Position numbers and translations under genes: made by a program. From the NCBI GenBank assembly GCA_003194445.1, contig PQXF01000006.1, positions 30,423-94,422 of the forward strand: DNA of 64,000 nt. The letters are read 5' to 3'. The notes beneath the pieces were generated by a model. That model was given only the letters and a program-made list of their open reading frames with translations, ran no database searches and was not told where the DNA came from. How positions within the stretch are numbered: the stretch's first letter is position 1; the number at the start of each line of letters is the position of its first letter. Shown here piece after piece: positions 3,795 through 49,460 of this stretch. This stretch comes from Candidatus Methanogaster sp. GTDB lineage: Archaea; Halobacteriota; Methanosarcinia; Methanosarcinales; Methanogasteraceae.

Positions 3795-3934
3795 TCCTAC
3801 TTTGTCACATTACAGACAAACCAACAGCGGTCGGTGGCATGACCTCAATCGTTTCATCCTATTCAATACACTCCCAAAAGCCTGAAGATGTGTCACTCGT
3901 TATACAACCCGAATCCGTGGAAGATGTGCTTCGG

Positions 3935-4036
3935 AAGCCGGATGAGGGGGATCTTCAAGTCCGGTTCTGTGAGGGGGTTCATAGCAACCTTGGGGCTATT
4001 ATCTCAAAAAAAGGTGTGCTATGGGCTCTACTCGAC
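3935..4036 (+). ncRNA. Group II intron 3' end remnant: domain V (3935-3968) and domain VI (~3971-4036)
   Basis: 34-nt aagccggatgagggggatcttcaagtccggttct folds as a DV hairpin (AGCCGGA/TCCGGTT, 2-nt AG bulge, TGAGG/CTTCA); followed by CATAGCA...TGCTATG stem, a possible bulged A 7 nt before the end, and 3' terminus CTCGAC. Confidence 0.7.
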
Positions 4037-30449: not shown

Positions 30450-31275
30450 ATGGCTACAAAGATGTTTGATGACGAAACTGACTTTAAGATGGTGATGAGT
30501 AAGATCTACAAGGAGACCGGTCTTGATTGTAAGCAATATAAGGACAACTATCTAAAACGCAGGATTAACGTCAGGATAAGGGCCCTCAATGCAGAATCCT
30601 ACCGCGATTATATGAGAATACTGGACAACAGCCCGAACGAATACGATCTGCTACTGGATAAACTCACGATCAACGTTACACAATTCTTCAGGGATAAGAC
30701 TGTGTTTAATGCAGTCGGGAACACGGTGCTTCCCGCATTGATATCTGACAAGAAAAATAAGGGAAAGAAGCTCATACGTATATGGAGCGCGGGATGTGCC
30801 AGCGGAGAGGAGCCGTACACCATCTCGATACTGTTGCACGAAGTACTGGGTAGTGATATCCACAATTTCATGATCTCGATCTATGCCACAGACATCGATG
30901 ATGCGGTCAATGGCAAATGCAAAGACGGGCGTGTATGAAGCCGCAGCCCTCAAAGGTGTGGAAAAGAGGATCATCGATAAATATTTCACGTACGATGGAA
31001 AGTATCATATAACCAGTGAGATCAAACGTCTTGTACGATTCAAGCACCTTGACCTGATCTCGGGGACGAACTTTTCACACATCGATATTATATTCTGTAG
31101 AAATGTTGTGATATATTTTTCAAAAGATCTTCAGAAGCGGCTGTACAACAAATTCCACGATGCATTGAATAGAGGCGGATACTTCGTCATGGGAAAGACT
31201 GAGACGCTTGTTGGTGATGCGAGAGATAAATTCAAGAGTACTAACAGCAAGGAACACATCTACCGAAAGCCGTGA
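30450..31275 (+). pseudogene. cheR: Chemotaxis protein methyltransferase, frameshifted
   Basis: ORF 30450-30938 (WSAGCASGEEPYTISILLHEVLG...ATDIDDA) and ORF 30883-31275 (NAKTGVYEAAALKGVEKRIIDKYF...IFCRNVVIYFSKDLQKRL); removing one G at 30912-30913 restores DAVNANAKTGVYE. Confidence 0.92.
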
Positions 31276-31288
31276 TACTCCCAAACCT

Positions 31289-31585
31289 TCACCCACTCCT
31301 CCCGACTCGCACCTCCCGCCTCGCCAGGACGAACCATGCCATATTCGTCACGAATGATCCGGTGATCATAGAAGCGATGATCATTCCGTACAGACTCCAA
31401 CCTGATAGAGAGAGCACGATGATGAATATGATGAGTGCAAGTTCACAAAGCCCGACAAGACCTGCGATCTGCGATATGGATGTGCGATGCTCCACGGTCT
31501 GTTCATAGCAGATCGTCCTCAAGTTGCTAACAACGGTCTGAAGTGCTTTCTCCTTCGAGACTCCCCCTCTCGTATTTCTTTTCAT
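31289..31585 (-). CDS. Small membrane protein, two TM segments
   Basis: GLVGLCELALIIFIIVLSLSGWSLYGMIIASMITGSFVTNMAWFVLA; start chosen at MKRNTRGG. Confidence 0.6.
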   Translation of the reverse strand: MKRNTRGGVSKEKALQTVVSNLRTICYEQTVEHRTSISQIAGLVGLCELALIIFIIVLSLSGWSLYGMIIASMITGSFVTNMAWFVLARREVRVGRSG

Positions 31586-31592
31586 AGTCCTC

Positions 31593-32070
31593 CTATAGTT
31601 CTTTGTCAACGCCCCTCACGGTCTTCACCAGTACCTTGCCGGATATCAGATCAAATCTCACTGTGCGCCCATTGTTCCCGCCGATATCCTCGCCGACTAT
31701 TTTGATATGCTCTTCCGTAAGCTTCTTTCACAGCAGCTATGTTCCGCTCTCCGATGTTCATGGTGTTGCCCTTCATACCTGAAAACATGTGCGCCCCACC
31801 TGCAATCTTTGCGATCGTCCTTAACTTTCTCGCACCGATATCCATCATATCGTGGATCGTTAGTGGTATTGCTGTGTCAGCAAACTTTCCAGGGTTGGTG
31901 TTTCTGGCTTGCGTGCTGTCCGGCAGCATGATATGCGAAAGCCCACCAACCTTTGCTCTCGAATCATAGAGAGCGATTCCAACGCATGACCCCAACCCGA
32001 TTGTGACCAATTCACATGGGTTGTGAGCTGCCCTGTATTCTCCAATCCCAATAGTATATGTTTCATTCAT
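31593..32070 (-). pseudogene. cheD: Chemoreceptor glutamine deamidase, frameshifted near its C-terminus
   Basis: GLGSCVGIALYD...GLSHIMLPDS...GGAHMF; annotated frame ends YGRAYQNSRRGYRREQWAHSEI, but dropping one base at 31715-31716 yields YEEHIKIVGEDIGGNNGRTVRFDLISGKVLVKTVRGVDKEL*, the expected CheD C-terminus. Confidence 0.9.
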
Positions 32071-32704
32071 CGATCTGTCCCCCAAGCATTTTTAGCACAT
32101 TCTTAAGCGATTCCGGATCCGGCATCAGCATGAAATATCCGGAAAAAACATTTAACTCCCCTTTAAAGACTGTTTTGAAGAGTATAACCTGGTCCGCCAC
32201 CATACCGACTGTTGCAAGCACATAATCCATCACCGCACCAGCCATATCGAAGGCAAGTGTGGGTGGCGATGTAATCAGTGTGATTCCTAAGAAATCAGCC
32301 CACGCAGTAGCGAATGCGGACGTCAGGATATTTCCTATCTCCATCAGTGCCGATTCATCCATCTCGGATAATGCCCCGGTACTCCCGATCTCCCTACCCA
32401 TCAGGATATCCACCAGTGCCAGTGCGCTATCTTGCGCAAACAGTAGCTGTATGTAATCGGTGGTATCGCCGGATAGTTCAAAGAACAGTCCTGCCATCAT
32501 CTCTTCTTCGTTGGCGAGTCCTGGAATCTCCGTGATAGGTATGACACTTATGTCTGGCACCCTTATAGCGATCCTTACACCGGTCATCTCTGCTAACGCG
32601 GTGGTAGCATGACCGGTACCGATATTCCCGAGCTCTTTTAATGCGTCGTACTCCATCTCAGTTAGTGCTATCTCGGTCATCATATTCACCTCAATCCACA
32701 GCAA
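32063..32704 (-). CDS. cheC: CheC phosphatase family protein
   Basis: DALKELGNIGTGHATTALAEMTG; DESALMEIGNILTSAFATAWADFLG. Confidence 0.92.
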   Translation of the reverse strand: MLWIEVNMMTEIALTEMEYDALKELGNIGTGHATTALAEMTGVRIAIRVPDISVIPITEIPGLANEEEMMAGLFFELSGDTTDYIQLLFAQDSALALVDILMGREIGSTGALSEMDESALMEIGNILTSAFATAWADFLGITLITSPPTLAFDMAGAVMDYVLATVGMVADQVILFKTVFKGELNVFSGYFMLMPDPESLKNVLKMLGGQIDE

Positions 32705-34580
32705 GTGTGGTTGTATCCAGTATTGGAATCACCCGCCCATCCCCGAGAATGGTGGTGCCACTAAACCCCCTGTTCCCTTCCAGCAATTTCCCAAGAGGTT
32801 TGATTACAATCTCCTCCTGATCAAGGATAGAATCTATGACCAGTCCGATATTTCCGTCACTCTTCTCTACCACAACGACAACGCGACTCTCTGTGGTCAC
32901 ATCTGCCGCTATTCCAAATAAGTGGCGTAACGTCACGAGCGGGAGCACCTTTCCTCGCAGATTGATGACCTCTGTCCCGCGTAACGTCTTTATATCTGCG
33001 GTGTTGATCTTTAATATCTCCAGAACGCCTGATAGGGGTATCGCATAAGTCATATCCCCCACATCGGCAAGCAGAGCCTGAATGATCGCCATTGTGATGG
33101 GAAGTCTCAGTCTCGTTTTGGATCCCGTCCCGATCTGTGACTGTATCTCAACGGTACCGCCAAGGGATTCGACCTTGCTCTTCACAACATCCATCCCAAC
33201 CCCCCTACCAGATACATCAGTGGTAACCTCAGCAGTGCTGAAACCCGGATTGAAGATCAGCAGCAATGCGTCCGTATCGCTCAGTTCCGAGGCTCTCTCT
33301 TCCGAGATGAATCCCTTTTTGACAGCGATATTCCTTACCTCTTCCGGATCTATCCCCTTGCCATCATCTTCTACCTTTATTGTGACATAACCCCTCTCCC
33401 GCTCTGCAATTAGTTTGATCGTCCCTGTTCGATCCTTGCCTTTACTCACCCGGTCATCGGGCGATTCGATACCGTGATCCACTGCATTCCTGAGCAGGTG
33501 GAGCAGAGGATCACCGATCTCATCCAGCACTGTTCGATCAAGCTCGATCTCGCTACCTTCGATGATAAAGTCGATCTCCTTCTTCTGCGTCTTGCCAAGG
33601 TCTCTGACCAGCCTTGGAAATCTGTTGAAGATGTGATCGACAGGGATCATCCTCATCTGTGTGATCTCGTCCTGCAGGTCGGTTATTATCCTATCAACCC
33701 TGGCTAACGTCTCGGTCAATTCCCTCAGTTGATATTTGTCCCCGATCCGGATCAATCTGCTCCTGTTGATCACCAGCTCCCCGACCAGATTCATCACGAC
33801 ATCCAGACGTTCGACACCTATGCGAACGCTTGAAGCGCTTCTCACTGTGGTCTTACCTGGTGCTTCTTCCTTGATCGATTCCTCCTCTTTCGTACTTGTT
33901 GTTAGCTCAACATGCGCTATATCGCCGACAGACTCAACCGCCCCTTTAAGCGTATCATCATCCTCAACGCTCTCTATGAATACTGTTAATTCCGGACCAA
34001 ACTTCTCATCTTCGATCTCCTGCAGATCAGGGATTGTTCTGATGATTTTTCCCAGTCCGGATAGGGTTCTGATCACTAAAAATCCTCTGGCACCTTTGAA
34101 TTGGCAGTCCTCACTTATAGAGATGTTTATCTCACGGATATTCTCCATGGTATCGGCTTCGGATTCCACAGTCTCCCAGCCACCCCCGGTTTCCTTACTC
34201 TCCTTAAATCTCTTCAGTCGCTCAAGTAGCGAAGAGGTGTCGATCTCCGCATCTCCGCCCCGATCGATCTCATCAACCATCGCTTCCAGTACATCAAAGC
34301 AGTTTAGCAGCACATCGACGATCCCGGACGTTACACCAAGTTCGTGATTACGCAGCTTGTCCAGCACGTCCTCCATCACATGACAGAGTTCTGCCATTGT
34401 ATTGAATTCCATCGTGGCAGACATGCCCTTAAGAGTATGTGCAGCACGGAATATCTCGTTTAACAGTGCCGGATCAGGGCTATGTTCCATGTCCAGCAAC
34501 GATCTGTTCAGGGTCTGCAGATACTCTCGCGACTCCTCCACGAAGACATTCCTATATTCCGATGTGTCCATACCAGTCAT
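32691..34580 (-). CDS. cheA: Chemotaxis sensor histidine kinase
   Basis: FRAAHTLKGMSATM; LLHLLRNAVDHGIESP; GRGVGMDVVKSKVESLGG; C-terminal CheW-like domain. Confidence 0.97.
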   Translation of the reverse strand: MTGMDTSEYRNVFVEESREYLQTLNRSLLDMEHSPDPALLNEIFRAAHTLKGMSATMEFNTMAELCHVMEDVLDKLRNHELGVTSGIVDVLLNCFDVLEAMVDEIDRGGDAEIDTSSLLERLKRFKESKETGGGWETVESEADTMENIREINISISEDCQFKGARGFLVIRTLSGLGKIIRTIPDLQEIEDEKFGPELTVFIESVEDDDTLKGAVESVGDIAHVELTTSTKEEESIKEEAPGKTTVRSASSVRIGVERLDVVMNLVGELVINRSRLIRIGDKYQLRELTETLARVDRIITDLQDEITQMRMIPVDHIFNRFPRLVRDLGKTQKKEIDFIIEGSEIELDRTVLDEIGDPLLHLLRNAVDHGIESPDDRVSKGKDRTGTIKLIAERERGYVTIKVEDDGKGIDPEEVRNIAVKKGFISEERASELSDTDALLLIFNPGFSTAEVTTDVSGRGVGMDVVKSKVESLGGTVEIQSQIGTGSKTRLRLPITMAIIQALLADVGDMTYAIPLSGVLEILKINTADIKTLRGTEVINLRGKVLPLVTLRHLFGIAADVTTESRVVVVVEKSDGNIGLVIDSILDQEEIVIKPLGKLLEGNRGFSGTTILGDGRVIPILDTTTLAVD

Positions 34581-35158
34581 CCAAGCATACTCCCAATCTC
34601 TTCAGGTATCTTATGAAGTGGAGCGATCCGATCCACGCATCCGAGATCGATTGCAGCTTTTGGCATGCCAAAGATGAGACTTGTCTCCTCATCGCTTACA
34701 ATCGTCTTCCCACCATGTTCCCTGATCGCTTCCATCCCACATGCGCCATCAGACCCCATCCCGGTCAGGATCATCCCGAGTGTCCGTGAACCGTAGCTCG
34801 CTGCAACCGACTGGAGCATTATATCAGCAGCCGGTCGTACAGCATGTACCGGAGGGTCTTGATTCGGATCCACCACTCTCCCGCCATTCTCTGCCCGTCT
34901 CACAACTATATGGTAATCGCCAGGCGCGATGAGTGCCTGCCCATCCTCTATTATGGCTTTGAGCGCTTCCAGCCCATCCATGCGAGGCATCTCCACGTCC
35001 AGTGTGATCACATCCGGATGGTGCAGTCTCGCCTGTGCTACCGCATCCATCCCATCCTTTGCTGTTGCAATCACGTCGATATGGGAGTCCGAAACCAGCA
35101 TATCCGAGATCAAAGTGCGCATAAACTTCGAATCATCGACTACGAGTGTTCGTATCAT
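34577..35158 (-). pseudogene. cheB: Protein-glutamate methylesterase with large internal in-frame deletion (REC start fused to C-terminal part of catalytic domain)
   Basis: 193 aa: MIRTLVVDDSKFMRTL...MPRMDGLEALKAIIEDG directly joined to QALIAPGDYHIVV...TLGMILTGMGSDGACGM; GASTGG-type Ser motif and following His region absent. Confidence 0.92.
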
Positions 35159-35165
35159 CGTTTTC

Positions 35166-35528
35166 TCAGTTAAGCACTTTGTTTATCTCTTCCAAGACCT
35201 TTAGTGCTTGAAACGGCTTTATGATGTAACCACTGGCGCCTGCTTTCATCGCATCCATGACTATAGACTGCTGCCCGACAGCAGTGCACATTATAATCTT
35301 TGCACCCGGATCAAGCATCATTATGTTCTTTGTCGCCTCAACACCGTCTTTATCAGGCATTACGACATCCATCGTCACCAATTCAGGCTTTAGCTGCGCA
35401 TACTGCTCTACCGCATCATTTCCATCACAGGCTTCGCCCGCGACAAAGTACCCATTCGACATTATGATCTTCTTTAGAAGCATTCTCATGAATTCCGCAT
35501 CATCAACGATCAATACTCCCTTTCCCAT
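35166..35528 (-). CDS. cheY: Chemotaxis response regulator
   Basis: VLIVDDAEFMRMLLKKII...VTMDVVMPDKDGVEATK...GYIIKPF. Confidence 0.95.
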   Translation of the reverse strand: MGKGVLIVDDAEFMRMLLKKIIMSNGYFVAGEACDGNDAVEQYAQLKPELVTMDVVMPDKDGVEATKNIMMLDPGAKIIMCTAVGQQSIVMDAMKAGASGYIIKPFQALKVLEEINKVLN

Positions 35529-35563: not shown

Positions 35564-36430
35564 TCAACCACCGAATCTCCTGTCCTTGGATAGATCGGTT
35601 ACGTACTTCATTCCTTCTGTCGTCAGTTCCAGCTCTCTTCGCACACGTACGACCTTTGCCAGTTTCGATTGTATCAGATGGTCGAAGTATCCGTCCAGTT
35701 CATCAGCCCCGCACTCAAGCATCTCCTCCATTATGGTCGAATCGACACCGCCTGTATAGAGGAGCATCACGATCTGATCTTCAGTATCTGACAGATTCGT
35801 CTCTGTTTCGTACTTGGCAAGTATGGTAGAGAGGTATCCGGTCACCATATTCATCGTATCCGCAGGACATGCAATCAAGCTTGATAATGCCTCACCAGCA
35901 TCATAATGGTTGATGGATACGGCACTATCGTCCTCACTCAATTTAGTCTCCTTCCGTTCGAAGGATATGATCTTTTCAAAGGGGATGCGCGTGTGGCTAT
36001 CCCTACCCACGAGCCAGACCGACTTGCCTGCTATCGCAAGCAAGCCCTTAGTCCACCTCTTCTCTGTGAGTAGTACCCCCCCTTTGCTTGCTGGTGAGAT
36101 GTAATACATCTTGAACCAATCCGGTCGAGGGGCTCTGACGATACTCATCTCAACCATATCCAGCACATTTGCCGGAGCTGCAATCTTACTCATCACTACC
36201 GCATTCCCTTCGTAGTGGTCGATTTGCAAGATCCCTTTCTTGCGTTCAATGTCCGATATGGCTCTCATGGAGATGTGTATGTTGTTCTGTCCGTGGACCA
36301 GCCACAGATTCATGTTTGTCAGCACAAGCGTGCCAGTCACCCATCTCCGGTCCTTGTACATCGCACCGCCGCTTCCGGCAGGTGAGATGAACCGCACATC
36401 GAGATTGGCTATATTCATCTCTTCCATCAT
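35564..36430 (-). CDS. cheF: CheF archaeal taxis protein
   Basis: About 288 aa with duplicated PH-like segments and C-terminal winged helix; between cheY and cheW. Confidence 0.8.
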   Translation of the reverse strand: MMEEMNIANLDVRFISPAGSGGAMYKDRRWVTGTLVLTNMNLWLVHGQNNIHISMRAISDIERKKGILQIDHYEGNAVVMSKIAAPANVLDMVEMSIVRAPRPDWFKMYYISPASKGGVLLTEKRWTKGLLAIAGKSVWLVGRDSHTRIPFEKIISFERKETKLSEDDSAVSINHYDAGEALSSLIACPADTMNMVTGYLSTILAKYETETNLSDTEDQIVMLLYTGGVDSTIMEEMLECGADELDGYFDHLIQSKLAKVVRVRRELELTTEGMKYVTDLSKDRRFGG

Positions 36431-36508
36431 ACACACCTCATGATAATTATCATGTATTATCTTACTTAAACCTTTCGGACTTATGCGCTCTTGATATCTC
36501 CTGTGATA

Positions 36509-36988
36509 TCACCCCATCCTGAGCATCTCTTCCTCAGCCAGTATCTTCCCGAGATCTATCAGGATTAAAAGGCGGTTCTCCAACTTACCAACGCCTTTTA
36601 AGTAATGCGTATCGATCTTGCTTGCTATTATAGGTGGCACCGGTTCAATATCCTTCGTAGGCAGACGTATTACCTCTGATACCGAGTCAACCATCATGCC
36701 AACGATATTATCCTTCAGTTCCACGATGATGATACGCTCCTCCTGATCCCTGTCGGTGTGGTCAAGACCGAATCGTTTTTTAAGATCGACGATAGTGGTG
36801 ATCTGTCCCCTGAGATTGATCACACCCTTCACATAAGCAGATGCGTTTGGGATGTGCGCAATCTCTCCGGTCCTGATGATCTCACGCACCTGTGAGATAT
36901 CCACACCGAACTCCTCCTCGCCAAGCTCAAATACAACCAGTTGTTGCTCCTGCTCTATTGCGTCATGACGTTTTGAGTCTTCTGTCAT
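36509..36988 (-). CDS. cheW: Chemotaxis adaptor CheW
   Basis: QLVVFELGEEEFGVDISQVREIIRTGEIAHIPNASAYVKGVINLRGQITTIVDLKKRFGL. Confidence 0.95.
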   Translation of the reverse strand: MTEDSKRHDAIEQEQQLVVFELGEEEFGVDISQVREIIRTGEIAHIPNASAYVKGVINLRGQITTIVDLKKRFGLDHTDRDQEERIIIVELKDNIVGMMVDSVSEVIRLPTKDIEPVPPIIASKIDTHYLKGVGKLENRLLILIDLGKILAEEEMLRMG

Positions 36989-36989
36989 C

Positions 36990-39092
36990 TCAGAATTCTC
37001 CCTCTTTCACTTTGAACCGGTCCAGCAGTTCCATCGCAGCCTGTGCCTGCTCTGATAGATGCTGGGATCCGGCGCTTAACTCTTCGATAGCTGCCAGCTG
37101 TTCTTCGACAGCAGAGGATATCTCTTCCGATGCGGATGCCGCTTCCTCGGATGTGCTTGTCATCTCGTCCGCACCCTTAGCCGCTTTCCCGATGCTTGCA
37201 GATCCCTGCTTTGATCCGGCAGCAACCTCCTGTACCCTGCTAGTAATCTCGGCCATCATCTCCACAGCTTCTGCTGCGCCATCGACAGCTTCTCTGATAG
37301 TTTCTGTCACTTCGACCGATTTATCTGCCATACCATGAGAAGAGTTCACAACGTCCGCCATCTCCTTCTGTATATCCTTTGCAAGGATTGCGATATCGTC
37401 AGTCGACTTTCTCGACTCCTCGGCAAGCTTTCGAACCTCCTCGGCAACGACAGCAAATCCCCTGCCGTACTCTCCGGCACGGGCTGCTTCTATCGCAGCA
37501 TTCAACGCGAGCAGATTCGTCTGGTCTGCAATATCCTTGATCACATCAGTCACATCACCGATCTTCTGGACAGCATCATTCAGACCACCGACCACTTGTG
37601 ACGACTCAGTTATCGCATCCCGAATCTCATCCACGCTATTTCTCGCGCTTCCGGATACCTCGCCGACATGCTGCACCGTTTCAACGCCACGCTCCAGAAG
37701 CTTGCTCGATTCTTCAATGGTCAAGTCCATCTCCTGGAACATAGCCGCGGTATCTTTCAGCTCCTCGACAGCATTATTTACAACTTCAGTAAGATTCTGT
37801 GCTCCTTGCGCGATCTCCTGCGATGCTGAGCCTATCTGCTCCATGCCAGAGTTCATCTCCTCGGTGGATGCTGCTGATTCCTCTGATACGGCTGCCACCG
37901 CCTGGACTGCTTTCTGAAGACCTGATACCAAATCCGACAGATCCATATTAGCCTGATCGAGGTTATCCCTGATCATGCTAAAGTCCCCCGGAGTCTCGGC
38001 TTTGAAGACCGCGGTCATATCCCCCTCTGCCATCATCCCGGTCACTCTACCGACGTCTTTGATGATCTCCTGTAGACCATCTCCGAACTTATTTAAGGTT
38101 TCTGTCATCTCAAGAAGTTCGCCTGATGCTTTTGTTGTCTCTGCTCTGGTAGCAAGTTTTCCGCTTGCAAAATCATCGACGACCCGCACCACCTCACCAA
38201 CAGGTCCTGTGATCGACCTGGTGACAAAAGTCGCAACCCCAATACCTATAACAATCGCCACAATGATAAACACTACCACATACATGGCAGCTCTATCTGC
38301 TGCCGCTGACGACGCTGCCTCTGCATTGACAAGCAGTGTGGTTGCCGCTGCATCGACCGTGCGCCCTGACTGCACGAGCGGACCTTCTGTGGAAGTATAC
38401 TCGGTAAAGTCGTGAACCGTGCCAACATAATCGGAAAACGACTTCTGATACGTATCTGCCGCATTTCTGATCGCACTCTTCTCAGATCCTGTGATCTCTG
38501 CTGCATTGGCGTCTGCCTTCAGCCGGTTCACCTCTGTGGATACATCTGCCGCGTATCTGTCATCCTCCCTTGCTACGAAATTCTTCTCAGCCCGCCTGGC
38601 TGCCAGCAACTGGGTGATCATTGCATCCTCGGTTACCTGATCGGCTGAACTGTCCTTTATCGCAGTCTCTACATTCCGTGCATCATCTTCGCAGGCAGAT
38701 AGTTGCCTTGCTTTGGCAGCCGTAAGCGTCTGAAGATCAACAAAAGCCCGATCATACGTAGGGATTGTTCTCTTCGCATCCGCCAATGCGACTTTGTTCG
38801 CAGCGATTGTCACCATCGGCTCAAGCTCGGTTATCAGACGCTTCACCTTCGTCACTGCTTCATTGGTCTTATCGATGCTTGTCTGGTCGCCTCGCAGTAT
38901 GTAGTTCTTCTCCTGCTGCCTGACATCCTTCATCACCGCCTTTAAGTCTGCCGATTTCCCCATCACCACGCTCTGATCCTGCATGGTACCTATCTGAAGA
39001 TGTGAAACGATCCCCAGTGCTGCCGTCAGTATCAGCACAACGCCGAACCCGGCAAAGAGTTTCGGTCCGATCTTCATGTTTCCCAACTTCAT
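36990..39092 (-). CDS. Methyl-accepting chemotaxis protein (2 TM, HAMP, signalling domain)
   Basis: [54 protein letters not shown] hairpin tip. Confidence 0.97.
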
Positions 39093-39209: not shown

Positions 39210-39668
39210 TTATTTTTTACCCCTCTTAAGCTCCGCCACAGTACGCCTCAGCTCAGCTACCAGCTCGTCCACCGTAGCCACCTCGAGATACTCCAGTATC
39301 TCATGATCTTCGGAATCATCAAGCTCATCGTCCATCTTTAGCTCTGTTAACAGCGTATCCTCTGTGGTATCTACCCCGCCTTGCCCGAATGCCTGCAGAT
39401 CGGTCTTATCATCATCCTGCTGAATCCATTCATCAGACTCTTCGCCTTCTCCGCCTTTAGCGGAATCGGAGGAGTCATCTTCAAAAGATGGTTCCTCATT
39501 ATCCACGTCATCTATCGTCTGCACCCATCCACCAGCAGATTCTGACTCCGGCTCTTCATCAGGCACCTCTTCATCAGATAATAGGTCTTCGATCTCCAGC
39601 TCAATGCCCAGCTCATCTTCCCCTTTCATCTTCCGGACCAGTTTTTCAGTTATCTCCCCTATATTCAT
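39210..39668 (-). CDS. Highly acidic hypothetical protein between MCP and arlJ
   Basis: 152 aa; long Asp/Glu-rich central part and short basic helical C-terminus VDELVAELRRTVAELKRGKK. Confidence 0.65.
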   Translation of the reverse strand: MNIGEITEKLVRKMKGEDELGIELEIEDLLSDEEVPDEEPESESAGGWVQTIDDVDNEEPSFEDDSSDSAKGGEGEESDEWIQQDDDKTDLQAFGQGGVDTTEDTLLTELKMDDELDDSEDHEILEYLEVATVDELVAELRRTVAELKRGKK

Positions 39669-39679
39669 ATCATCACCTC

Positions 39680-41158
39680 TTACACGTTAATCGCAAACAT
39701 CGTAGATACAAGAACCGGTACGACCAGCATAACCAGACCCGATATAGCAGTTATCATCGCGCCATAGAAGAATACCTTACACTTTGAACCGCCATCTGCC
39801 ACCGTCAATGCAGCGGTGTCTGCAATCGTCAGTATCAAGACGGATGCTATCGTAAACTGGTACAGGAATATAAGCTCGGCAGGACTTGTACTTCCGAAAC
39901 TGCCAGCAAGCCCTGCCATATCCGCCACGCCCCCCTCCACACCCTCAGCTAAGCCCGACGATTCGAACATCTCCGTAAGCGCATTATTAAATGCGACTAT
40001 GATCTCGATGATGAATATGAGAAGAGCTGACATTGCTAAGTGAAGCAGCATAACCAGCCCTGCAAAGTTGGCACTGACAGGTTTTCGCTTCATCCTTAAG
40101 AGAACGATTGCAAGGCTTGACGAAGAGACGATCCTTCCGATCTCCGCAGGATCTCCACCAAGCTTTATAGCATCGTTAAATATCCTCGTGCACCGGTTCA
40201 TCAGCTCGGATCCACTGTCCTTGATGAACCGCTCCCAGCAGAGACTCGGGCTGAGTTCAAGCGATAGGCTTTTATGTAGTGTATCGACCAGTGGTTCAAG
40301 GGATCCGACTGTTTCACGGTCTAAGTGGTTCATCGCAATATTCGGGTTGGTGCCCATCGTTCCTGCAAGTGAACCAAGCGTCTTTATAAACGCGGGAAAG
40401 TCAAAATCCCTGTCAGTTATCTTGCCATCATCGATCACCGCCATAACTCCGATCGGAGCTACGAATGCTGCGGCAACGATCATAATATACCCGAGAGGTA
40501 TCTGTAACAGAAGGAGCCCGAGTGTCAATAGGAATCCAGCCGGAAGTAATGCCCTGCAGAGCAGTTTTATGATCTCTTGTTCTTTCGATCCGGTCTCAAG
40601 CGAATGCACTCTAAACTCGAATGGAGCCGCATCGCGTATGGTAAACACTCCTATCCCACAGATGACTACCATCACCAGGGAGATCACAAACGCAGTCTGG
40701 TGTATCTCCCCAAGCGGGTACAGCATCGTTGATAGCAGTATAACCATCACAATGAGCGTTGTTGAGATAAGGAGCGCGGTATACCCATCCGTCCATTTCT
40801 TAAGTGCCTCGATGCTTCTTTCATAGTTATTAGAGTAGATACTTTCCGTCGTGCTCATCTCATTCTTTAGAAACTCCTTTTCAGGCTCTCCTGACGACAT
40901 GGCACTTGCCATTCTCCCAAAAAATTCCTTTAAGACCACAAATTTTGCTTTTTTTGAGATGAATTTGCACGCCCTTGAATATGCATAGCTCCACTTTGCA
41001 GCAAGCGTATATACCCGCTTGAAATATATCGACAGTTCATATTTCTGCTCGGATGTATGTTTGAATAGCTCATTCCTATCGATGTCTGCTGTGGCAATCG
41101 ATGCCATATATGTGAGCAGGAAGAGCAGATCATCCGCAACCCTCTTCTCCACACTCAT
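39680..41158 (-). CDS. arlJ: Archaellum assembly membrane protein ArlJ/FlaJ
   Basis: T2SF-like membrane protein downstream of arlI with 4-nt overlap. Confidence 0.92.
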   Translation of the reverse strand: MSVEKRVADDLLFLLTYMASIATADIDRNELFKHTSEQKYELSIYFKRVYTLAAKWSYAYSRACKFISKKAKFVVLKEFFGRMASAMSSGEPEKEFLKNEMSTTESIYSNNYERSIEALKKWTDGYTALLISTTLIVMVILLSTMLYPLGEIHQTAFVISLVMVVICGIGVFTIRDAAPFEFRVHSLETGSKEQEIIKLLCRALLPAGFLLTLGLLLLQIPLGYIMIVAAAFVAPIGVMAVIDDGKITDRDFDFPAFIKTLGSLAGTMGTNPNIAMNHLDRETVGSLEPLVDTLHKSLSLELSPSLCWERFIKDSGSELMNRCTRIFNDAIKLGGDPAEIGRIVSSSSLAIVLLRMKRKPVSANFAGLVMLLHLAMSALLIFIIEIIVAFNNALTEMFESSGLAEGVEGGVADMAGLAGSFGSTSPAELIFLYQFTIASVLILTIADTAALTVADGGSKCKVFFYGAMITAISGLVMLVVPVLVSTMFAINV

Positions 41159-42918
41159 ACGAGCCCCTCCTCTTCCGCACGCCCCATCATAGCGAATAGC
41201 TCGTAGAATCCGAGTACCCCTGCATCATGTACCTTCCTTAAGACCTTCTCTCTTCGATCAAGCTCCTTATATATCCTTCTCCGCTTATTCTTCGGTAAGC
41301 CGCGCTTTGGAGCGATCTTGTTCTCAAGCAAGTACGAGTTGTTCTTTCCTGTAAATTTGAATACATCCTTTGAGGCATCCCATTGAAACGTCTCAATGAA
41401 TGAGAATGCCTGAGAAGATGGATCATATCCTATGATCTCGTTGATGCTTGTGATGCGCCTTGCCATCCCTTTACCCGGGACGTTCACAGCGTTCTGGATG
41501 ACAACAAGGTTTAAGTTGTCTATATAAGTCTTCGGAACATTTATGGGATCACCGGTCAGCCGCTGGATCAGCTTCTCAACAGATGCTGCGTGAAACGTAG
41601 CCATTGCAGGATGCCCTGTCTGCATCGCCTGAAAAGCGATGTTACCCTCAGCACCCCTGATCTCTCCGATTATTATCTCATTCGGACGCTGCCTCAAGGC
41701 AGCCTTCAGCAGATCAAACATCGTCACGTCCGAGCTTCCCCCGTCTCCGGATCCTCTTGTGACTTCTCTCAGCCAGTTCTTGTGAGGTACCTGTAATTCA
41801 GGTGTGTCTTCTATTGATATAACCTTTGCGTCTGCCTGTATACACGTTGTCATTGCATTAAGCGTCGTTGTCTTTCCTGATGCGGTTTCACCAACAACGA
41901 AACAGTTCATCCCCGCACCCAACAACATCCAGAGGTACGCAGCCATCTTGTAGTTGAGCGTCTGGAAGTCGATGATGTTTAAGAGGCTAAGCGGCGTCTC
42001 TGAAAACTTCCTTATCGTGAAATTGCTGCCCCGTTTCGATACATCCTCTCCGAACACGATGTTTATCCTTGATCCGTCGGGAAGCGCAGCATCGACGATC
42101 GGATCCCGGTATGTTATCGGCTTTCCTATCTTCTCTGACATCCGTATAACATAAGAATCGAGATCCGCTATACTCCCAAACGTTATCGATGTCTTTAATC
42201 CGGAAAAGATCTTGTGCTCCACAAATATCCGCCCCACACCACTGCAACTGATATCCTCGATATACGGATCCATCAACAGTGGCTGGAGGGGACCCATCCC
42301 GATCTTATCCTTGAATAGATAGTATTTAACCTTCTTAAATTCATCAGGGGTTACATGCACCTTCTTATTTTTGGTGGTACTGGCAAATCCGTGGATGCGA
42401 TCAAATATCTTCTTCTTAAGCCCTCCCTCTTCTCCCACATCCCTACCGTCTTCTATGATGCATACGTCATTCAGACCCTCTTCGAGCAAGGCTTTCTTAG
42501 AATCCATATCCTCTGTTGTAATCTCCAGAACGTCTACGATATCGACAAGTGCTTCTTCCACCTCTATGAGCAGTTCATCGACACTCGCGAACAGGGTTGG
42601 TTCGACAGGGATGTAGTAGTTCCGCACATCCTCTTTATCCGGATATATGTGGATGGATACTCCATCTCCGGCAGGATATATGATATTTGGCTTTGCTATC
42701 TTCTTCAGATCTCTTGAAAGCTCGGGGTAGAACTTTGGTACGCCTATCTCATCGAGTGGAAGCATGTGGATATAGTCAAGTACATGGTGGTTCTCCTCTG
42801 CATTTAAGAACTTCTTCGCATCCGGAGGCAACATGCGGTAGAGCCCGCACTGTCTCAGGTCGGCTCCATGTGCCTCGGAGACGTTCGGTTCAAAGGGCAG
42901 AGATTCCATTTCAACCAC
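41155..42918 (-). CDS. arlI: Archaellum ATPase ArlI/FlaI
   Basis: CFVVGETASGKTTTLNAMTTCIQADAKVISIEDTPELQVPHKNWLREVTR; RPNEIIIGEIRGAEG. Confidence 0.96.
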   Translation of the reverse strand: MVEMESLPFEPNVSEAHGADLRQCGLYRMLPPDAKKFLNAEENHHVLDYIHMLPLDEIGVPKFYPELSRDLKKIAKPNIIYPAGDGVSIHIYPDKEDVRNYYIPVEPTLFASVDELLIEVEEALVDIVDVLEITTEDMDSKKALLEEGLNDVCIIEDGRDVGEEGGLKKKIFDRIHGFASTTKNKKVHVTPDEFKKVKYYLFKDKIGMGPLQPLLMDPYIEDISCSGVGRIFVEHKIFSGLKTSITFGSIADLDSYVIRMSEKIGKPITYRDPIVDAALPDGSRINIVFGEDVSKRGSNFTIRKFSETPLSLLNIIDFQTLNYKMAAYLWMLLGAGMNCFVVGETASGKTTTLNAMTTCIQADAKVISIEDTPELQVPHKNWLREVTRGSGDGGSSDVTMFDLLKAALRQRPNEIIIGEIRGAEGNIAFQAMQTGHPAMATFHAASVEKLIQRLTGDPINVPKTYIDNLNLVVIQNAVNVPGKGMARRITSINEIIGYDPSSQAFSFIETFQWDASKDVFKFTGKNNSYLLENKIAPKRGLPKNKRRRIYKELDRREKVLRKVHDAGVLGFYELFAMMGRAEEEGLV

Positions 42919-42923
42919 CTTGC

Positions 42924-43679
42924 TTACGCCTTTGCCTTCGAGATCGGGATGATCCTCATACCAAAGCCAGGATCAACGTCGAAGCTGACGATGTTTCCTG
43001 TGCTCTTCTGTGCACCCCGTATCTTTGCAACCTCCAGCGACTTTATCATCTGATCGCCGGCTTCTTCTATCTTCAGGTGCAGGTGTGCGTCACAGATCGA
43101 CCTGATCCTGATCAGGAGATTCTCAGGAAATGCATAGCCATGTGCAGTCAGTAGAATCGTCTTTCCAAGATCGCACAACTTCTTGCATCCTGTGAAGAAA
43201 TTTAAGATGTCGTTATCATTCGAATGAAAGACAAAGACCGTGAGCGAATCGATGATGATAATCTCATTCTTGCATTGCTTCATGGATTTCAGCATGAACT
43301 CGAGCAGGTTACCACTCGCGTTTTCATCCCAGTCAACGCCCTGCACGTGGATCGGGAATATATTCAAACGCCCTATGATGAAATAATCGTCTACATCGAG
43401 TGATAGACTTGTCATCTGCTTAAGCAGGCTCTTGATAGTGTTTTCAGTCGTAAATATGGAGATGCGCCGTCCCTGATTCAAGCCCCCCCACATAATCTGC
43501 TGCACAAGGACCGACTTACCACTGTCGTTCTGTCCTTCGAAGAGGGATAATGAATCCATCGGGATTCCGCCACCCATCTTCTGATCGATCTCATAATTTC
43601 CCGAGGATACGACATCCGCAAGAAAGTCTTCTTCATCGTCTTCTTCATCGTCAAATTCTTCTTCAGCCATATTGATCAC
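42924..43679 (-). CDS. arlH: Archaellum KaiC-like ATPase ArlH/FlaH
   Basis: GGGIPMDSLSLFEGQNDSGKSVLVQQIMWGGL; NEIIIIDSLTVFV. Confidence 0.93.
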   Translation of the reverse strand: MINMAEEEFDDEEDDEEDFLADVVSSGNYEIDQKMGGGIPMDSLSLFEGQNDSGKSVLVQQIMWGGLNQGRRISIFTTENTIKSLLKQMTSLSLDVDDYFIIGRLNIFPIHVQGVDWDENASGNLLEFMLKSMKQCKNEIIIIDSLTVFVFHSNDNDILNFFTGCKKLCDLGKTILLTAHGYAFPENLLIRIRSICDAHLHLKIEEAGDQMIKSLEVAKIRGAQKSTGNIVSFDVDPGFGMRIIPISKAKA

Positions 43680-44206
43680 CCACTAAAATATTTTGATGTG
43701 CTAACTCCGTTCGGAGTCGTTATCTGAAGCCAGTTATTCACACTGTCTACCTTCACCGGAGATCCACTCACTTTAATCCGGATGGTCATCTCTTCATCCG
43801 GATCGAATATACCCGGATTGATGTTATCAGGTGATATTCCTGTTATCGTCCATTCATTATCGTCCGGCGTTGTTTCCTCTGTGTATGAGATCCGGACGAT
43901 CTTCAGTGTCCCCCCACCGATAGGCGTATAGTAATGCAGGATCGCATCCATCTGTGAGAATTCCCGTATCTTCTCATGACCCGTATTTGCGAGTGTTACA
44001 TCGATGGTAGACCCATCAGCCGTGATATTACCGATCTCTATCTCGGTCTTCAACTGCTTATTCTCCGTATCCTGCACTTCCTTCATAGAGCTTGTTAATG
44101 TATTGGTCATATATAACCCCCCTGTTATAACAACGTTGGCTGCTATCAGGATTGCTGCAACCGCTACCACCGCCGCAATGATTGATCCAGCCCCCATTTC
44201 GATCAC
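43676..44206 (-). CDS. arlF: Archaellum stator-type protein, ArlF-like
   Basis: N-terminal single TM MGAGSIIAAVVAVAAILIAANVVITGG followed by beta-rich domain; position before arlH. Confidence 0.75.
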   Translation of the reverse strand: MIEMGAGSIIAAVVAVAAILIAANVVITGGLYMTNTLTSSMKEVQDTENKQLKTEIEIGNITADGSTIDVTLANTGHEKIREFSQMDAILHYYTPIGGGTLKIVRISYTEETTPDDNEWTITGISPDNINPGIFDPDEEMTIRIKVSGSPVKVDSVNNWLQITTPNGVSTSKYFSG

Positions 44207-44694
44207 ACCGTGAAATAGTCCTCATCCGAGATACCATTATACATTATTAACTTTACGAAGTACTCCGTACCCGATATAACCGGATCAGCAGTCGTATTCG
44301 CCGTGACCTTGATCGTCTCTCCCTGCCCCCACTTATCCCCGCCGTTTTCGAGTGTATAGTTCCAACCTGGTGAGATTGATCCGGACGCATTATACTCAAG
44401 CCTCATGAAATCTCCTTCCGGTCCGAAGAAGAGGTCTGAGTTAGCGATCATATTCTGAGGGATACGATTATTTCCCACGTTCTTGACCCAGATGTAGACG
44501 ATGTTTCCGGATGAAGAGTCTGTCTCGTGTATGATCGTTATGTCGGTCTTCATCCTATCATTGATCGCGTCTGTTGAAGCTATGAGCGGATCCTGTGTCC
44601 TTGCAATCGCCGGAAATGCCGAAGTGACGAATGTTGCAGCACATATCACGGACGCTATCGTGATCATAGCAATACTGATCGTTTCTCCGCCCAT
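44203..44694 (-). CDS. arlG: Archaellum stator-type protein, ArlG-like
   Basis: N-terminal TM MGGETISIAMITIASVICAATFVTSAFPAI then beta domain; position in operon. Confidence 0.75.
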   Translation of the reverse strand: MGGETISIAMITIASVICAATFVTSAFPAIARTQDPLIASTDAINDRMKTDITIIHETDSSSGNIVYIWVKNVGNNRIPQNMIANSDLFFGPEGDFMRLEYNASGSISPGWNYTLENGGDKWGQGETIKVTANTTADPVISGTEYFVKLIMYNGISDEDYFTV

Positions 44695-45750
44695 CTACCC
44701 CACCGTCCTCCATGGCAGTTCCCCGTATATCGAATAGATCGCCTTCTGATCAGACTCGCTTGGATGCAGTACCGCATTTAACTGGAACATCGCGGCTATG
44801 TGATCCTGCATCGTTGACGTACTCCCTTCAGCAACCTCCCGGGTGGACAGCTCCGCGATCTTCGAGACGATGTCTTTTAGCGCCTCTGATATATGGCCGG
44901 TAATCACATATAGATCCAGCAGCTCATCCAATCTACTTCGTTCGATCGTCGTAAGTGTGTAATCTGTCCATCTCATCAGTTCGGCGAGGGTACGGATGTC
45001 AAATCCGTTACCAGGTTGGATTTCCGGGGTTTCTTCCGGCATCTCTTCGCTCTGCTTCGCTTCATCGTACTGCTTAAACATCTCTGCAAAGCCCGGAGCA
45101 TGATCTGACGTCGCCTCCTGTGTAGCCCCATCATCTTCGCTCTGCTTCGCTTCCTCGTACTGCTTAAACATCTCTGCAAAGTCCGGAGCCTGATCTGGTG
45201 TTTCCTCTTGCATCGTCCCCTCCTGCTGCACCGGCATCTCATGTTGCACCGGCATTCCCTGTTGCACCGGCATCTCATGTTGCACCGGTATTCCCTGTTG
45301 CATCGGTATTCCCTGTTGCATCGGTATTCCCTGTTGCATCGGTATTCCCTGTTGCACCGGCATCTCATGTTGCACCGGCACCCCCTCCTGCACCGGCATC
45401 TCATGTTGCATCGGCATCCCCTGCTGCATCGGTGTCTCGGAAACGCCAGGTGCAGGTCCTGCGCCCATCTGCTGCCCTCCCTCCTGCGGCACCGGCGCTT
45501 CTGCAAAGTCCGGATGGGGCTCCTCTTCAAATACATCTTCAGGCTGGATGCTCCTCCCCGGGGCATCTCCTTTCAGTTCTACCTTTGTCTCTATTGAGGT
45601 GTCCGGACCATCAGTTATATCTTGAGTGTTATAAAATGGATTCTCCATATTATTCATGATCTCCCGGATATCTATCAGTAACGCTTTTATCTCCCCTTTT
45701 ACGATCTTAACCTCATTATCAAGTAATGTTAGCTTTTTATCTGATTCCAT
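44695..45750 (-). CDS. Archaellum ArlC/D/E-like protein with expanded Q/M/P-rich repeat linker
   Basis: C-terminal FlaD/E-like domain (LAELMRWTDYTLTTIERSRLDELLDLYVITGHIS); internal heptad repeats; start chosen at MESDKKLTLL. Confidence 0.82.
   Translation of the reverse strand: MESDKKLTLLDNEVKIVKGEIKALLIDIREIMNNMENPFYNTQDITDGPDTSIETKVELKGDAPGRSIQPEDVFEEEPHPDFAEAPVPQEGGQQMGAGPAPGVSETPMQQGMPMQHEMPVQEGVPVQHEMPVQQGIPMQQGIPMQQGIPMQQGIPVQHEMPVQQGMPVQHEMPVQQEGTMQEETPDQAPDFAEMFKQYEEAKQSEDDGATQEATSDHAPGFAEMFKQYDEAKQSEEMPEETPEIQPGNGFDIRTLAELMRWTDYTLTTIERSRLDELLDLYVITGHISEALKDIVSKIAELSTREVAEGSTSTMQDHIAAMFQLNAVLHPSESDQKAIYSIYGELPWRTVG
45225..45440 (-). repeat. 21-bp tandem repeat array encoding (P[MV]Q[QH][GE][IM]) type heptad units
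   Basis: ccctgttgcatcggtatt repeated four times nearly identically, flanked by diverged units. Confidence 0.9.
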
Positions 45751-45785
45751 GATTCCCACCTCCCAAAAAAATAAAGGAGGTACTC

Positions 45786-46526
45786 TTAGTTGAGTACCAT
45801 CGTCTTCTGTATCGAGCCTGGTGCGGTCTTTGTGATCGTCAGAGTCGCTCCCTGTCCTGGCTTTATGTCGATCACGAACTCTTCGTAAGCTCCTACGCCC
45901 CATGCTGGCAATGCTATCAGCATCAGCATCTTCTCTGTCGGGTCGAGCATGTTGGAAGTGCCCGCCTCATCTGTCAGCAGGGAGTATGCCCACTGTCCGG
46001 ACGTTGACGTTAACGTAAAGTTACCGCTACTTGCATTGCCACTCGAGTCAACAAGAGCCGTAGTTACAGCTTCCACCTCGGCTACATACGTGTCAACATC
46101 GCTGTACGAGACCACAATCTTATCCATGTCGACCGGATTCTGCCCTGCTGCAAGTTCCACCTGGATCTCAACAAGGTTAAGCCCGGTTGTGTTCTCTTTG
46201 TTCTTAGTCGCTGTACTATTGCCCCATGCGTAGTAGCTGTAGTAGTCACCACTAGCATTCCATATCCCGTCCGAGTCCACTTTGCCATACGTCCACCCGT
46301 GCCCGGCTATATAGCCGCCAATCTCCAGAGAGGATGTTGCCTGATCAACGCCTGTGTGGATGACCTCCTTGCTCTTCTCAGATGTGAAGAAGCCAGCACC
46401 CAGTACCACATAGCTGAATACCGCTGCAACCACCACAAACGCGGTCAGCACGATAGCAGCTTCAAGACCGGTGAAAGCTCTCTCATCCCTAAGCAGTTTA
46501 TTGTTAAATAGTCTCATCTTCATCAC
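45786..46526 (-). CDS. arlB3: Archaellin
   Basis: DERAFTGLEAAIVLTAFVVVAAVFSYVVLGAGFFTSEKSKEVIHTGVDQATSS. Confidence 0.95.
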   Translation of the reverse strand: MMKMRLFNNKLLRDERAFTGLEAAIVLTAFVVVAAVFSYVVLGAGFFTSEKSKEVIHTGVDQATSSLEIGGYIAGHGWTYGKVDSDGIWNASGDYYSYYAWGNSTATKNKENTTGLNLVEIQVELAAGQNPVDMDKIVVSYSDVDTYVAEVEAVTTALVDSSGNASSGNFTLTSTSGQWAYSLLTDEAGTSNMLDPTEKMLMLIALPAWGVGAYEEFVIDIKPGQGATLTITKTAPGSIQKTMVLN

Positions 46527-47103: not shown

Positions 47104-47778
47104 TTAGTACAATACCATTATGGTATCGATAGCTCCCGGGACCGTCTTTTCTATTGCAAGAGATGCCCCACTCGCTGGTTTCAGCTCCACCTGCAACTGC
47201 TTATTGATTGCAACTCCGCCGATACCGTTTCCCGCTTCAGTAGGCAGGTAGATTTTCACCTGTGCCATCTCGCCGGTCTCGAGCATGACATCGTCATCCC
47301 CGTGATCACCGTCCTGACCTGCGACAAAGGCAAAATCCCATTCCCCAGCACTGTTTGCCTCTATACTCTGGTATGGGGATCCTCCAGTGTCAGTATATGT
47401 AAGACTTCCGTTGTACACGTACTGGTCTGCATACGCTACCGTCAACTTGGACAGGTCAACCGGATTGTTGCCCGCTGTCAGCTGTATGTATACCGTTACA
47501 GCCCCTAACCTGTTCGTACCATCACTGGTCGCACTAGTATTCTTGTGACCTATCACATCTCCCGCGAGTTCGACCGAAGAAGTCGCCTGGTCCATACCCG
47601 TGTGGATGACCTCCTTGCTCTTCTCCGATGTGAAGAATCCCGCTCCGAGCACCACATAGCTGAATACAGCAGCCACCACCACAAACGCTGTCAACACGAT
47701 TGCTGCTTCCAGACCTGTGAATGCCTTTTCGTCCTTCCCAAAGTCCTTGAACTTCCCAAGGAATTTCAATATGTTCAT
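47104..47778 (-). CDS. arlB1: Archaellin (first of three)
   Basis: DEKAFTGLEAAIVLTAFVVVAAVFSYVVLGAGFFTSEKSKEVIHTGMDQATSS; SD aggagg before MNILKF. Confidence 0.95.
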   Translation of the reverse strand: MNILKFLGKFKDFGKDEKAFTGLEAAIVLTAFVVVAAVFSYVVLGAGFFTSEKSKEVIHTGMDQATSSVELAGDVIGHKNTSATSDGTNRLGAVTVYIQLTAGNNPVDLSKLTVAYADQYVYNGSLTYTDTGGSPYQSIEANSAGEWDFAFVAGQDGDHGDDDVMLETGEMAQVKIYLPTEAGNGIGGVAINKQLQVELKPASGASLAIEKTVPGAIDTIMVLY

Positions 47779-47821
47779 ATTTGTTTCCTCCTGTATTGTT
47801 GTATACCCCACTCACCCACCA

Positions 47822-47942: not shown

Positions 47943-49460
47943 CAATACCACTACCTTAAGAAAATAATCCGATAGAATCAATAAAGTATATGTACTTGGC
48001 ATCTTATTATGTTAGCATAAAGTTTCGTAAATTATTACGAATCCACAAACTAGGTGTCAACAATGTTCAATTCTATCCACAAACGGATTTCCTACCAGAT
48101 AATCGCACTGAGGCTATGCTTTGCCCAAATCGATGGTTTGCCCTTCAGCGATATCCTTTCGGCTGAAACCATCCGGAATATTATGGATGAAGAAGTAGGC
48201 AGTTATCGAGACCGTATATATTCCCCTCTAATCACCCTATCTGCATTCTTGTCCCAAGTACTCAGTTCGGATCATTCCTGCCGAAATGCAGTAGCAAAGG
48301 TGCTTGCGGAACGAGTGGCGCAAGGCGAGTCGCCCTGCTCATCAAACACCAAATCTTATTGCAAAGCCAGATTACGCCTTCCTACAAGTCTTGTCAGGCG
48401 ATTAGTGCGTGAGACTGGTAAATTGCTGCATCTGAAGTCAGAAGAGGGTTGGAAATGGAAAGGTCGTTCAGTTAAGCTTGTAGATGGAACGACGGTCTCA
48501 ATGCCAGATACCCCTGAAAACCAGAAGACATATCCACAGCCTGAAGGGCAGAAACCGGGTGTAGGCTTTCCAATCGCCCGTATCGTCGCTATAATCTCAT
48601 TATCTTGCGGAGCAGTCCTTGACGTAGCGATCGGACCTTACAAGGGCAAGGAAACTGGTGAACATGCTCTGTTACGCCAGATATTGGACAGCATATCTGC
48701 AGGCGATATTATATTGGGAGATCGCTACTATTGTTCGTATTTCTTGATTGTCATGCTACAGTGGTTGGGCGCGGACTCGGTCTTCCGGATCCATGGCAGC
48801 CGCAAAAGCGATTTCCGCCGAGGTAAGCATCTTGGCAAAAAAGACCACATCGTTATATGGAAAAAGCCAAAACAACGACCGAATTGGATGGATGAGTCCA
48901 TGTACCGCCAAATGCCAGACACGCTTACAATACGCGAGATCAAAATCAATAGAAAAGTTATTACTACCACTCTCCTTGACCCAAAAAAATTTACAAGAGA
49001 GGAAATAGATGAACTTTACACGAAACGGTGGTTGATCGAAGTGGACTTCAGGTTCATCAAAACAGTTCTCCAGATGGATATTTTGAGGTGCAAAACACCT
49101 GACATGGTTTATAAGGAAATCTGGGTGAATTTGCTGGCGTATAATCTGATCCGAACGGTCATGGCGCAAGCGGCGCATCGTTATAACCTTCCACCACGAA
49201 CATTGAGTTTCAAAGGCACGTTACAGCAGTTAAATGCATTTAAGGAGAGATTTCTGCGCACTGCCAAAAAACATTTGTCTACTATGTGCAAATATCTTCT
49301 GGAAGCTATTGTCAGTCATCGTGTGGGGAATAGACATAGGCGCAGTGAACTGCGTGCCGTCAAACGACGGCGTAAACCTTATCCGTTACTCACTAAACCA
49401 CGAGAAGAAGCTCGTAATGAATTATGTGGAGGTGGGGTATCTGCTTAAGGTAGTGGTATT
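47943..49460 (+). mobile_element. Intact IS4-type insertion sequence, ~1.52 kb, with TIRs and 10-bp target duplication ACATATTGCC
   Basis: 17-bp perfect TIR aataccactaccttaag/cttaaggtagtggtatt; direct repeats acatattgcc at 47933-47942 and 49461-49470. Confidence 0.95.
48054..49448 (+). CDS. IS4 family transposase (ISPepr1-like)
   Basis: LVDGTTVSMPDTPENQKTYPQPEGQKPGVGFPIARIVAIISLSCGAVLDVAIGPYKGKETGEHALLRQ...GDRYYCSYF; YTKRWLIEVDFRFIK. Confidence 0.93.
   Translation: MSTMFNSIHKRISYQIIALRLCFAQIDGLPFSDILSAETIRNIMDEEVGSYRDRIYSPLITLSAFLSQVLSSDHSCRNAVAKVLAERVAQGESPCSSNTKSYCKARLRLPTSLVRRLVRETGKLLHLKSEEGWKWKGRSVKLVDGTTVSMPDTPENQKTYPQPEGQKPGVGFPIARIVAIISLSCGAVLDVAIGPYKGKETGEHALLRQILDSISAGDIILGDRYYCSYFLIVMLQWLGADSVFRIHGSRKSDFRRGKHLGKKDHIVIWKKPKQRPNWMDESMYRQMPDTLTIREIKINRKVITTTLLDPKKFTREEIDELYTKRWLIEVDFRFIKTVLQMDILRCKTPDMVYKEIWVNLLAYNLIRTVMAQAAHRYNLPPRTLSFKGTLQQLNAFKERFLRTAKKHLSTMCKYLLEAIVSHRVGNRHRRSELRAVKRRRKPYPLLTKPREEARNELCGGGVSA

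What the first reader, a model, noticed from the sequence alone, without database searches (positions are those of the whole stretch)
34577..35158. CheB with ~150-160 aa in-frame internal deletion: half a receiver domain fused to half a methylesterase
The 193-aa product runs MPRMDGLEALKAIIEDG|QALIAPGDYHIVV. Canonical CheB is about 350 aa; missing are the C-terminal REC half (Thr/Lys switch region), the linker, the GASTGG-type catalytic Ser and the catalytic His, while the MGSDGACGM Asp region remains. The frame is preserved and the ATGA-type overlap with cheA is kept, so the chimera may still be translated, conceivably as a phosphate sink or CheA-coupling relic.
Basis: partly seen in the sequence, partly recalled or inferred. 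Interest (0 to 1): 0.7.

Follow-up and report, generated by a model that had tools for sequence, protein, structure and literature searches.

The report
Decaying chemotaxis operon in ANME-2c archaeon
A chemotaxis gene (cheB) in a methane-oxidising archaeon has lost its middle third and almost certainly no longer works; the two other genes that let the cell reset its chemical sensor are broken too, and close relatives have deleted the whole chemotaxis operon, so this looks like a steering system caught being lost rather than a new protein.

Summary
ORF 34577-35158(-) is a 193-aa in-frame fusion of the first ~69 residues of a CheB receiver to the last ~124 residues of a CheB methylesterase. It lacks ~146-150 aa against the nearest intact homologues, including the receiver Ser/Lys and the catalytic Ser and His. 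It is the only CheB-like place in the genome. AlphaFold2 gives an intact relative pTM 0.83 and the chimera 0.46.

The gene is not alone. In the same window cheR and cheD are each frame-shifted, while cheA, cheY, cheW, cheC, cheF and the genome's single MCP are open. So each of the three receptor-adaptation genes carries its own lesion. Three congeners keep closely similar archaellum genes at the same locus but have lost the operon from MCP to cheD, leaving a cheD relic (one genome), cheR scraps (three) and a group II intron (two). Intact CheB occurs in sister genera.

Best reading: a degenerate cheB in a chemotaxis operon being lost within an ANME-2c genus, with the adaptation branch hit first in this species. 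A phosphate-sink role is not supported. Assembly error is not excluded for single lesions. Ordinary gene decay, but a clear snapshot of stepwise loss.

The parts
34577..35158 (-). degenerate cheB: receiver half fused in frame to methylesterase half, 193 aa
   Evidence: Pfam, alignment with intact CheB, only CheB match in the genome
34949..34954 (-). deletion junction (GCC ATA|ATA GAG), uncertain by a few codons
   Evidence: alignment gap of 146-150 aa against same-family CheB
30450..31275 (+). cheR, broken by a frame change; first frame ends at TGA 30936-30938, second frame open from 30883; inverted relative to the operon in G008 and G010
31600..32085 (-). cheD, broken by a frame change near 31715-31735; the conserved C-terminus continues in another frame
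   Evidence: the G002 relic keeps the frame here
31289..31609 (-). small membrane-protein-like ORF between cheD and cheR, kept in three congeners
   Evidence: no Pfam or NCBIfam match
32063..32704 (-). cheC, open
   Evidence: Pfam CheC
32691..34580 (-). cheA, open, all five domains
   Evidence: Pfam Hpt, P2, H-kinase_dim, HATPase_c, CheW
35166..35528 (-). cheY, open
   Evidence: Pfam Response_reg 1-110/111
35564..36436 (-). cheF-like, open
   Evidence: Pfam CheF-arch; about 22% identity to G008 CheF
36509..36988 (-). cheW, open
   Evidence: Pfam CheW
36990..39092 (-). the only MCP of the genome, open; still carries methylation-site-like motifs
   Evidence: PF00015 search of own genome, HAMP and MCPsignal, motif scan
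39680..44694 (-). archaellum genes (FlaJ, FlaI, FlaH, FlaF/G-like), open; kept in congeners without che

Best explanation
The ORF is a non-functional cheB created by an in-frame deletion of about 440 bp, in a chemotaxis operon that is being lost within an ANME-2c genus of Methanosarcinales. In this species each of the three receptor-modification genes (cheR methyltransferase, cheB methylesterase, cheD deamidase) carries its own lesion, while receptor, CheW, CheA, CheY, CheC and CheF remain open. The sensor-to-archaellum path may therefore still run, but without methylation-based adaptation. Shown: the lesions in the assembly, the absence of other copies, and the collapsed syntenic loci in congeners that keep the archaellum. 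Inferred: that the chimera is inactive, that the lesions are real rather than assembly errors, and that the rest of the pathway still works (about even odds). Preservation of frame is a one-in-three chance outcome; it may have been tolerated because it leaves translation into the downstream cheA undisturbed, whereas cheD and the detached, inverted cheR could take frameshifts. That last step is speculation.
For: Two of three catalytic-triad residues and the receiver Ser/Lys lie in the lost block. The chimera scores 212 bits against the NCBIfam CheB model with cut-off 293; intact G008 CheB scores 441. AlphaFold2: pTM 0.46 for the chimera vs 0.83 for the intact control. cheR and cheD split in frame; no other copies of cheB, cheR or cheD in the genome. 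Frame breaks are rare elsewhere in the genome: 3/9 che genes broken vs 4/110 others, Fisher p=0.009. Congeners G002, G003 and G005 lack che between the archaellum and the permease but hold relics of cheR, and G002 also of cheD, with a group II intron at the site in two.
Against: No reads: each lesion could singly be an assembly or consensus error. The cheB frame is preserved, with no stop, and the remaining residues are as conserved as the intact che genes (48-56% to relatives), so either the lesion is young or the product is kept. The statistics on which genes are hit are post hoc.
Confidence: 0.8

Rival explanations
1. Assembly artefact: the cheB deletion is a collapse and the cheR and cheD indels are consensus errors; the organism has a normal adaptation system.
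For: Metagenome-like fragmented assembly (169 contigs, 91.6% complete); no reads available; a few other frame breaks exist in the genome.
Against: The cheR and cheD breaks are not at homopolymers of four or more; breaks are rare elsewhere; three separate lesions fall on three functionally linked genes; congeners independently show che loss.
Confidence: 0.13
2. The whole chemotaxis operon is already dead or unused and lesions fall at random; that cheR, cheB and cheD were hit first is coincidence.
For: Congeners lost the whole operon while keeping the archaellum, so che is dispensable in this genus; lesions are few and look young; cheF is weakly conserved.
Against: About 2,100 codons of the six other che genes carry no lesion while about 780 codons' worth of cheB, cheD and cheR carry three (p about 0.004-0.02, post hoc). 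This differs from the best explanation only in whether the remaining pathway still works.
Confidence: 0.4
3. The chimera is a retained functional protein, a phosphate sink or CheA-binding relic.
For: Frame kept; Asp54 and the acidic pair kept; P2 domain present in CheA.
Against: Receiver lacks strands 4-5 and the Ser/Lys; poor predicted packing; found in no other genome; accompanying lesions in cheR and cheD.
Confidence: 0.04

Closest known systems
CheB, receiver plus methylesterase (Salmonella CheB PDB 1a2o; Haloarcula marismortui CheB PDB 7esg)
   Same: Both halves are clearly derived from it; located between cheY and cheA as in relatives
   Different: Middle ~146-150 aa missing, including catalytic Ser and His and the receiver Ser/Lys
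Chemotaxis systems without CheR and CheB (Helicobacter pylori; PMC11357200)
   Same: CheA, CheW, CheY and receptor without methylation-based adaptation, if the remaining genes work
   Different: Here the genes are still present as broken copies; no CheV was looked for or seen; cheC and cheF are kept
Ordinary pseudogenes of a decaying operon
   Same: One lesion per gene, intact homologues in sister genera, relics in congeners
   Different: The cheB deletion keeps the frame

Membership tests
Functional CheB methylesterase | Catalytic Ser (STGG) | tested here: not met
   in the missing block
Functional CheB methylesterase | Catalytic His (QHMP) | tested here: not met
   in the missing block
Functional CheB methylesterase | Catalytic Asp (MGxDG) | tested here: met
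   aligned Asp present
Functional CheB methylesterase | Complete receiver with acidic pair, phospho-Asp, Ser/Thr and Lys | tested here: not met
   acidic pair and Asp54 present, Ser and Lys missing
Functional CheB methylesterase | Curated family cut-off (NCBIfam NF001965) | tested here: not met
   212 bits vs cut-off 293; intact G008 CheB 441
Pseudogene of a decaying che operon | Intact homologues in relatives, lesion absent there | tested here: met
Pseudogene of a decaying che operon | Relaxed selection (dN/dS near 1) on the remnant | not testable with these tools
   no second genome with this cheB was found
Chemotaxis without methylation-based adaptation | CheR, CheB and CheD absent or broken with no second copies | tested here: met
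Chemotaxis without methylation-based adaptation | Receptor, CheW, CheA, CheY, CheF and archaellum genes open | tested here: met
Chemotaxis without methylation-based adaptation | Remaining pathway still transduces signals | not testable with these tools
   needs expression or behaviour data

The most novel reading that the evidence does not exclude
A living archaeon runs chemotaxis from one receptor to the archaellum after losing all methylation-based adaptation (CheR, CheB, CheD), an intermediate stage on the way to losing chemotaxis while keeping the archaellum.
Probability: 0.3. Interest if true: 0.5.

Novelty: new member of a known kind. Interest (0 to 1): 0.32.

Why it matters
It gives a series of chemotaxis loss around one uncultured ANME-2c genus: complete operons in sister genera, an operon with only the adaptation genes broken here, and archaellum genes next to che relics in three congeners. 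If real, it suggests that ANME-2c may keep an archaellum without needing steering, and that receptor adaptation can be the first part to go. The chimera itself adds no new protein function.

Tried and rejected
A shared, ancestral chimera: rejected, because no relative has it and the scan of the species-level genome collection with patterns that included the junction peptide KAIIEDGQ returned no close junction match. A well-folded half-domain chimera: not supported by AlphaFold2 (vs control); Foldseek gives about 1 A over the receiver half but about 18 A over the whole chain. Programmed frameshifting in cheR or cheD: no slippery run seen at the breaks. A generally error-ridden assembly as the cause: few other breaks. 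L224 looked like a frameshift but is two adjacent genes. Literature searches for ANME-2c chemotaxis gave nothing pertinent.

Full report
Observation. The ORF at 34577-35158(-) exists as described. Residues 5-73 match the first 68 of 111 positions of the receiver profile, and residues 68-188 match positions 61-174 of the CheB methylesterase profile. It is the only CheB match in the genome. Aligned with 25 intact CheB proteins from the same order, a single block is missing: 146-150 aa against the same family, up to 184 aa against others with longer linkers. The junction lies between ALKAI and IEDGQALIAPGDYH (34949-34954, uncertain by a few codons). The missing block holds the receiver Ser and Lys, the catalytic Ser and the catalytic His; the acidic pair, Asp54 and the catalytic Asp remain. 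Microhomology at the junction cannot be judged, because no genome with the undeleted parental sequence is at hand.

Does it fold? AlphaFold2 on the chimera with 25 homologues gives mean pLDDT 78.5, pTM 0.46 and values below 50 at residues 73-79 across the junction. An intact relative with the same homologues gives 89.4 and 0.83. Foldseek superposes the receiver half on receiver domains at about 1 A over ~70 residues, but the whole chain only at ~18 A on full CheB. The chimera thus looks like two incomplete half-domains.

The neighbours. cheR (30450-31275, +) is split between two frames with a TGA at 30936. cheD (31651-32085, -) changes frame near 31715-31735 and its conserved C-terminus continues in another frame. 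Neither has another copy in the genome. cheR is also inverted: in G008 and G010 it lies on the same strand as, and directly behind, cheD. cheA, cheC, cheY, cheF, cheW and the only MCP are open with their expected domains. The broken set is exactly the receptor-modification set.

Chance and error. In 549 kb of this genome compared with reference ORFs, 119 ORFs had strong references. Outside the che genes four frame-break candidates appeared. One proved to be two adjacent genes, one concerns only the last 24 aa, and one sits at a T7 run. With the uncorrected count, 3 of 9 che genes broken against 4 of 110 others gives Fisher p=0.009. Three random lesions falling once each on cheB, cheD and cheR has probability 0.004 by length. 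Both figures are post hoc. Reads were not available, so an artefact at any one site remains possible.

Relatives. The seven congeners held have no CheB and no real CheA. In three of them, G002, G003 and G005, the archaellum genes are present, open and 75-94% identical in protein; FlaI and FlaJ between G000 and G003 show dN/dS of 0.14 and 0.27. In G002 and G003 homology to the window runs to the MCP start codon (39089) and then stops. It resumes, in G002, with a 109-bp cheD relic, and in all three with the small membrane ORF (31307-31560), a cheR scrap of 11-17 aa and the ABC-type permease. In G005 homology stops earlier, at 39571. A group II intron (RF00029) lies at the site in G002 and G003. 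The operon was therefore present in the ancestor, with cheR already beside the small ORF, and was lost in these species. The cheR scraps are short and their single-hit E-values weak (0.007-0.13), but they stand at the same place and orientation in all three. The G002 cheD relic keeps the frame where G000 has one extra base, so at least the cheD lesion of G000 is its own. Sister genera keep full operons with 333-343 aa CheB.

Organism. McrA of congener G002 matches, over all 561 residues and at 1223 bits, the MCR alpha subunit labelled as from ANME-2c (PDB 9qm5); the next best match scores 857 bits. The genus is therefore most likely ANME-2c; G000 itself carries mcrA.

Mechanism. Best supported: an inactive cheB remnant in a chemotaxis operon being lost. 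If the remaining genes are expressed, the MCP-CheW-CheA-CheY-CheF path to the archaellum could still signal but could not adapt by methylation. That has a precedent in Helicobacter pylori, which lacks CheR and CheB (PMC11357200). Whether the remainder works cannot be told from sequence. The phosphate-sink idea is unlikely because the receiver is incomplete.

Verdict. Observation confirmed; interpretation partly supported; ordinary gene decay in an informative setting. Interest 0.32.

Noticed in passing
L205:2266-4029 (congener G003), compare window 41155-42918: The archaellum ATPase FlaI of G003 reads GETASEKTT where G000, G002 and G005 read GETASGKTT: the conserved Walker A Gly is Glu, which may mean that the archaellum too is decaying there.
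   Followed up: partly
window 48054-49448 (+): DDE transposase (PF01609) about 240 bp upstream of the first archaellin ORF (47104-47811, -); it may affect expression of the archaellum operon.
   Followed up: no
window 3933-4036 (+): Group II intron (RF00029, 40.2 bits), similar to the one at the collapsed che locus of G003.
   Followed up: no
window 45198-45659 (overlapping ORF 44695-45903, -): FlaD/E-like ORF with a tandem repeat of MPVQQGIPMQ-type units; repeat number seems to differ among congeners (multiple overlapping matches).
   Followed up: no
G032 (same order), contig C224: Has a CheA match in a 496-aa frame but no CheB in a 92% complete genome; possibly another decaying chemotaxis operon.
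   Followed up: no
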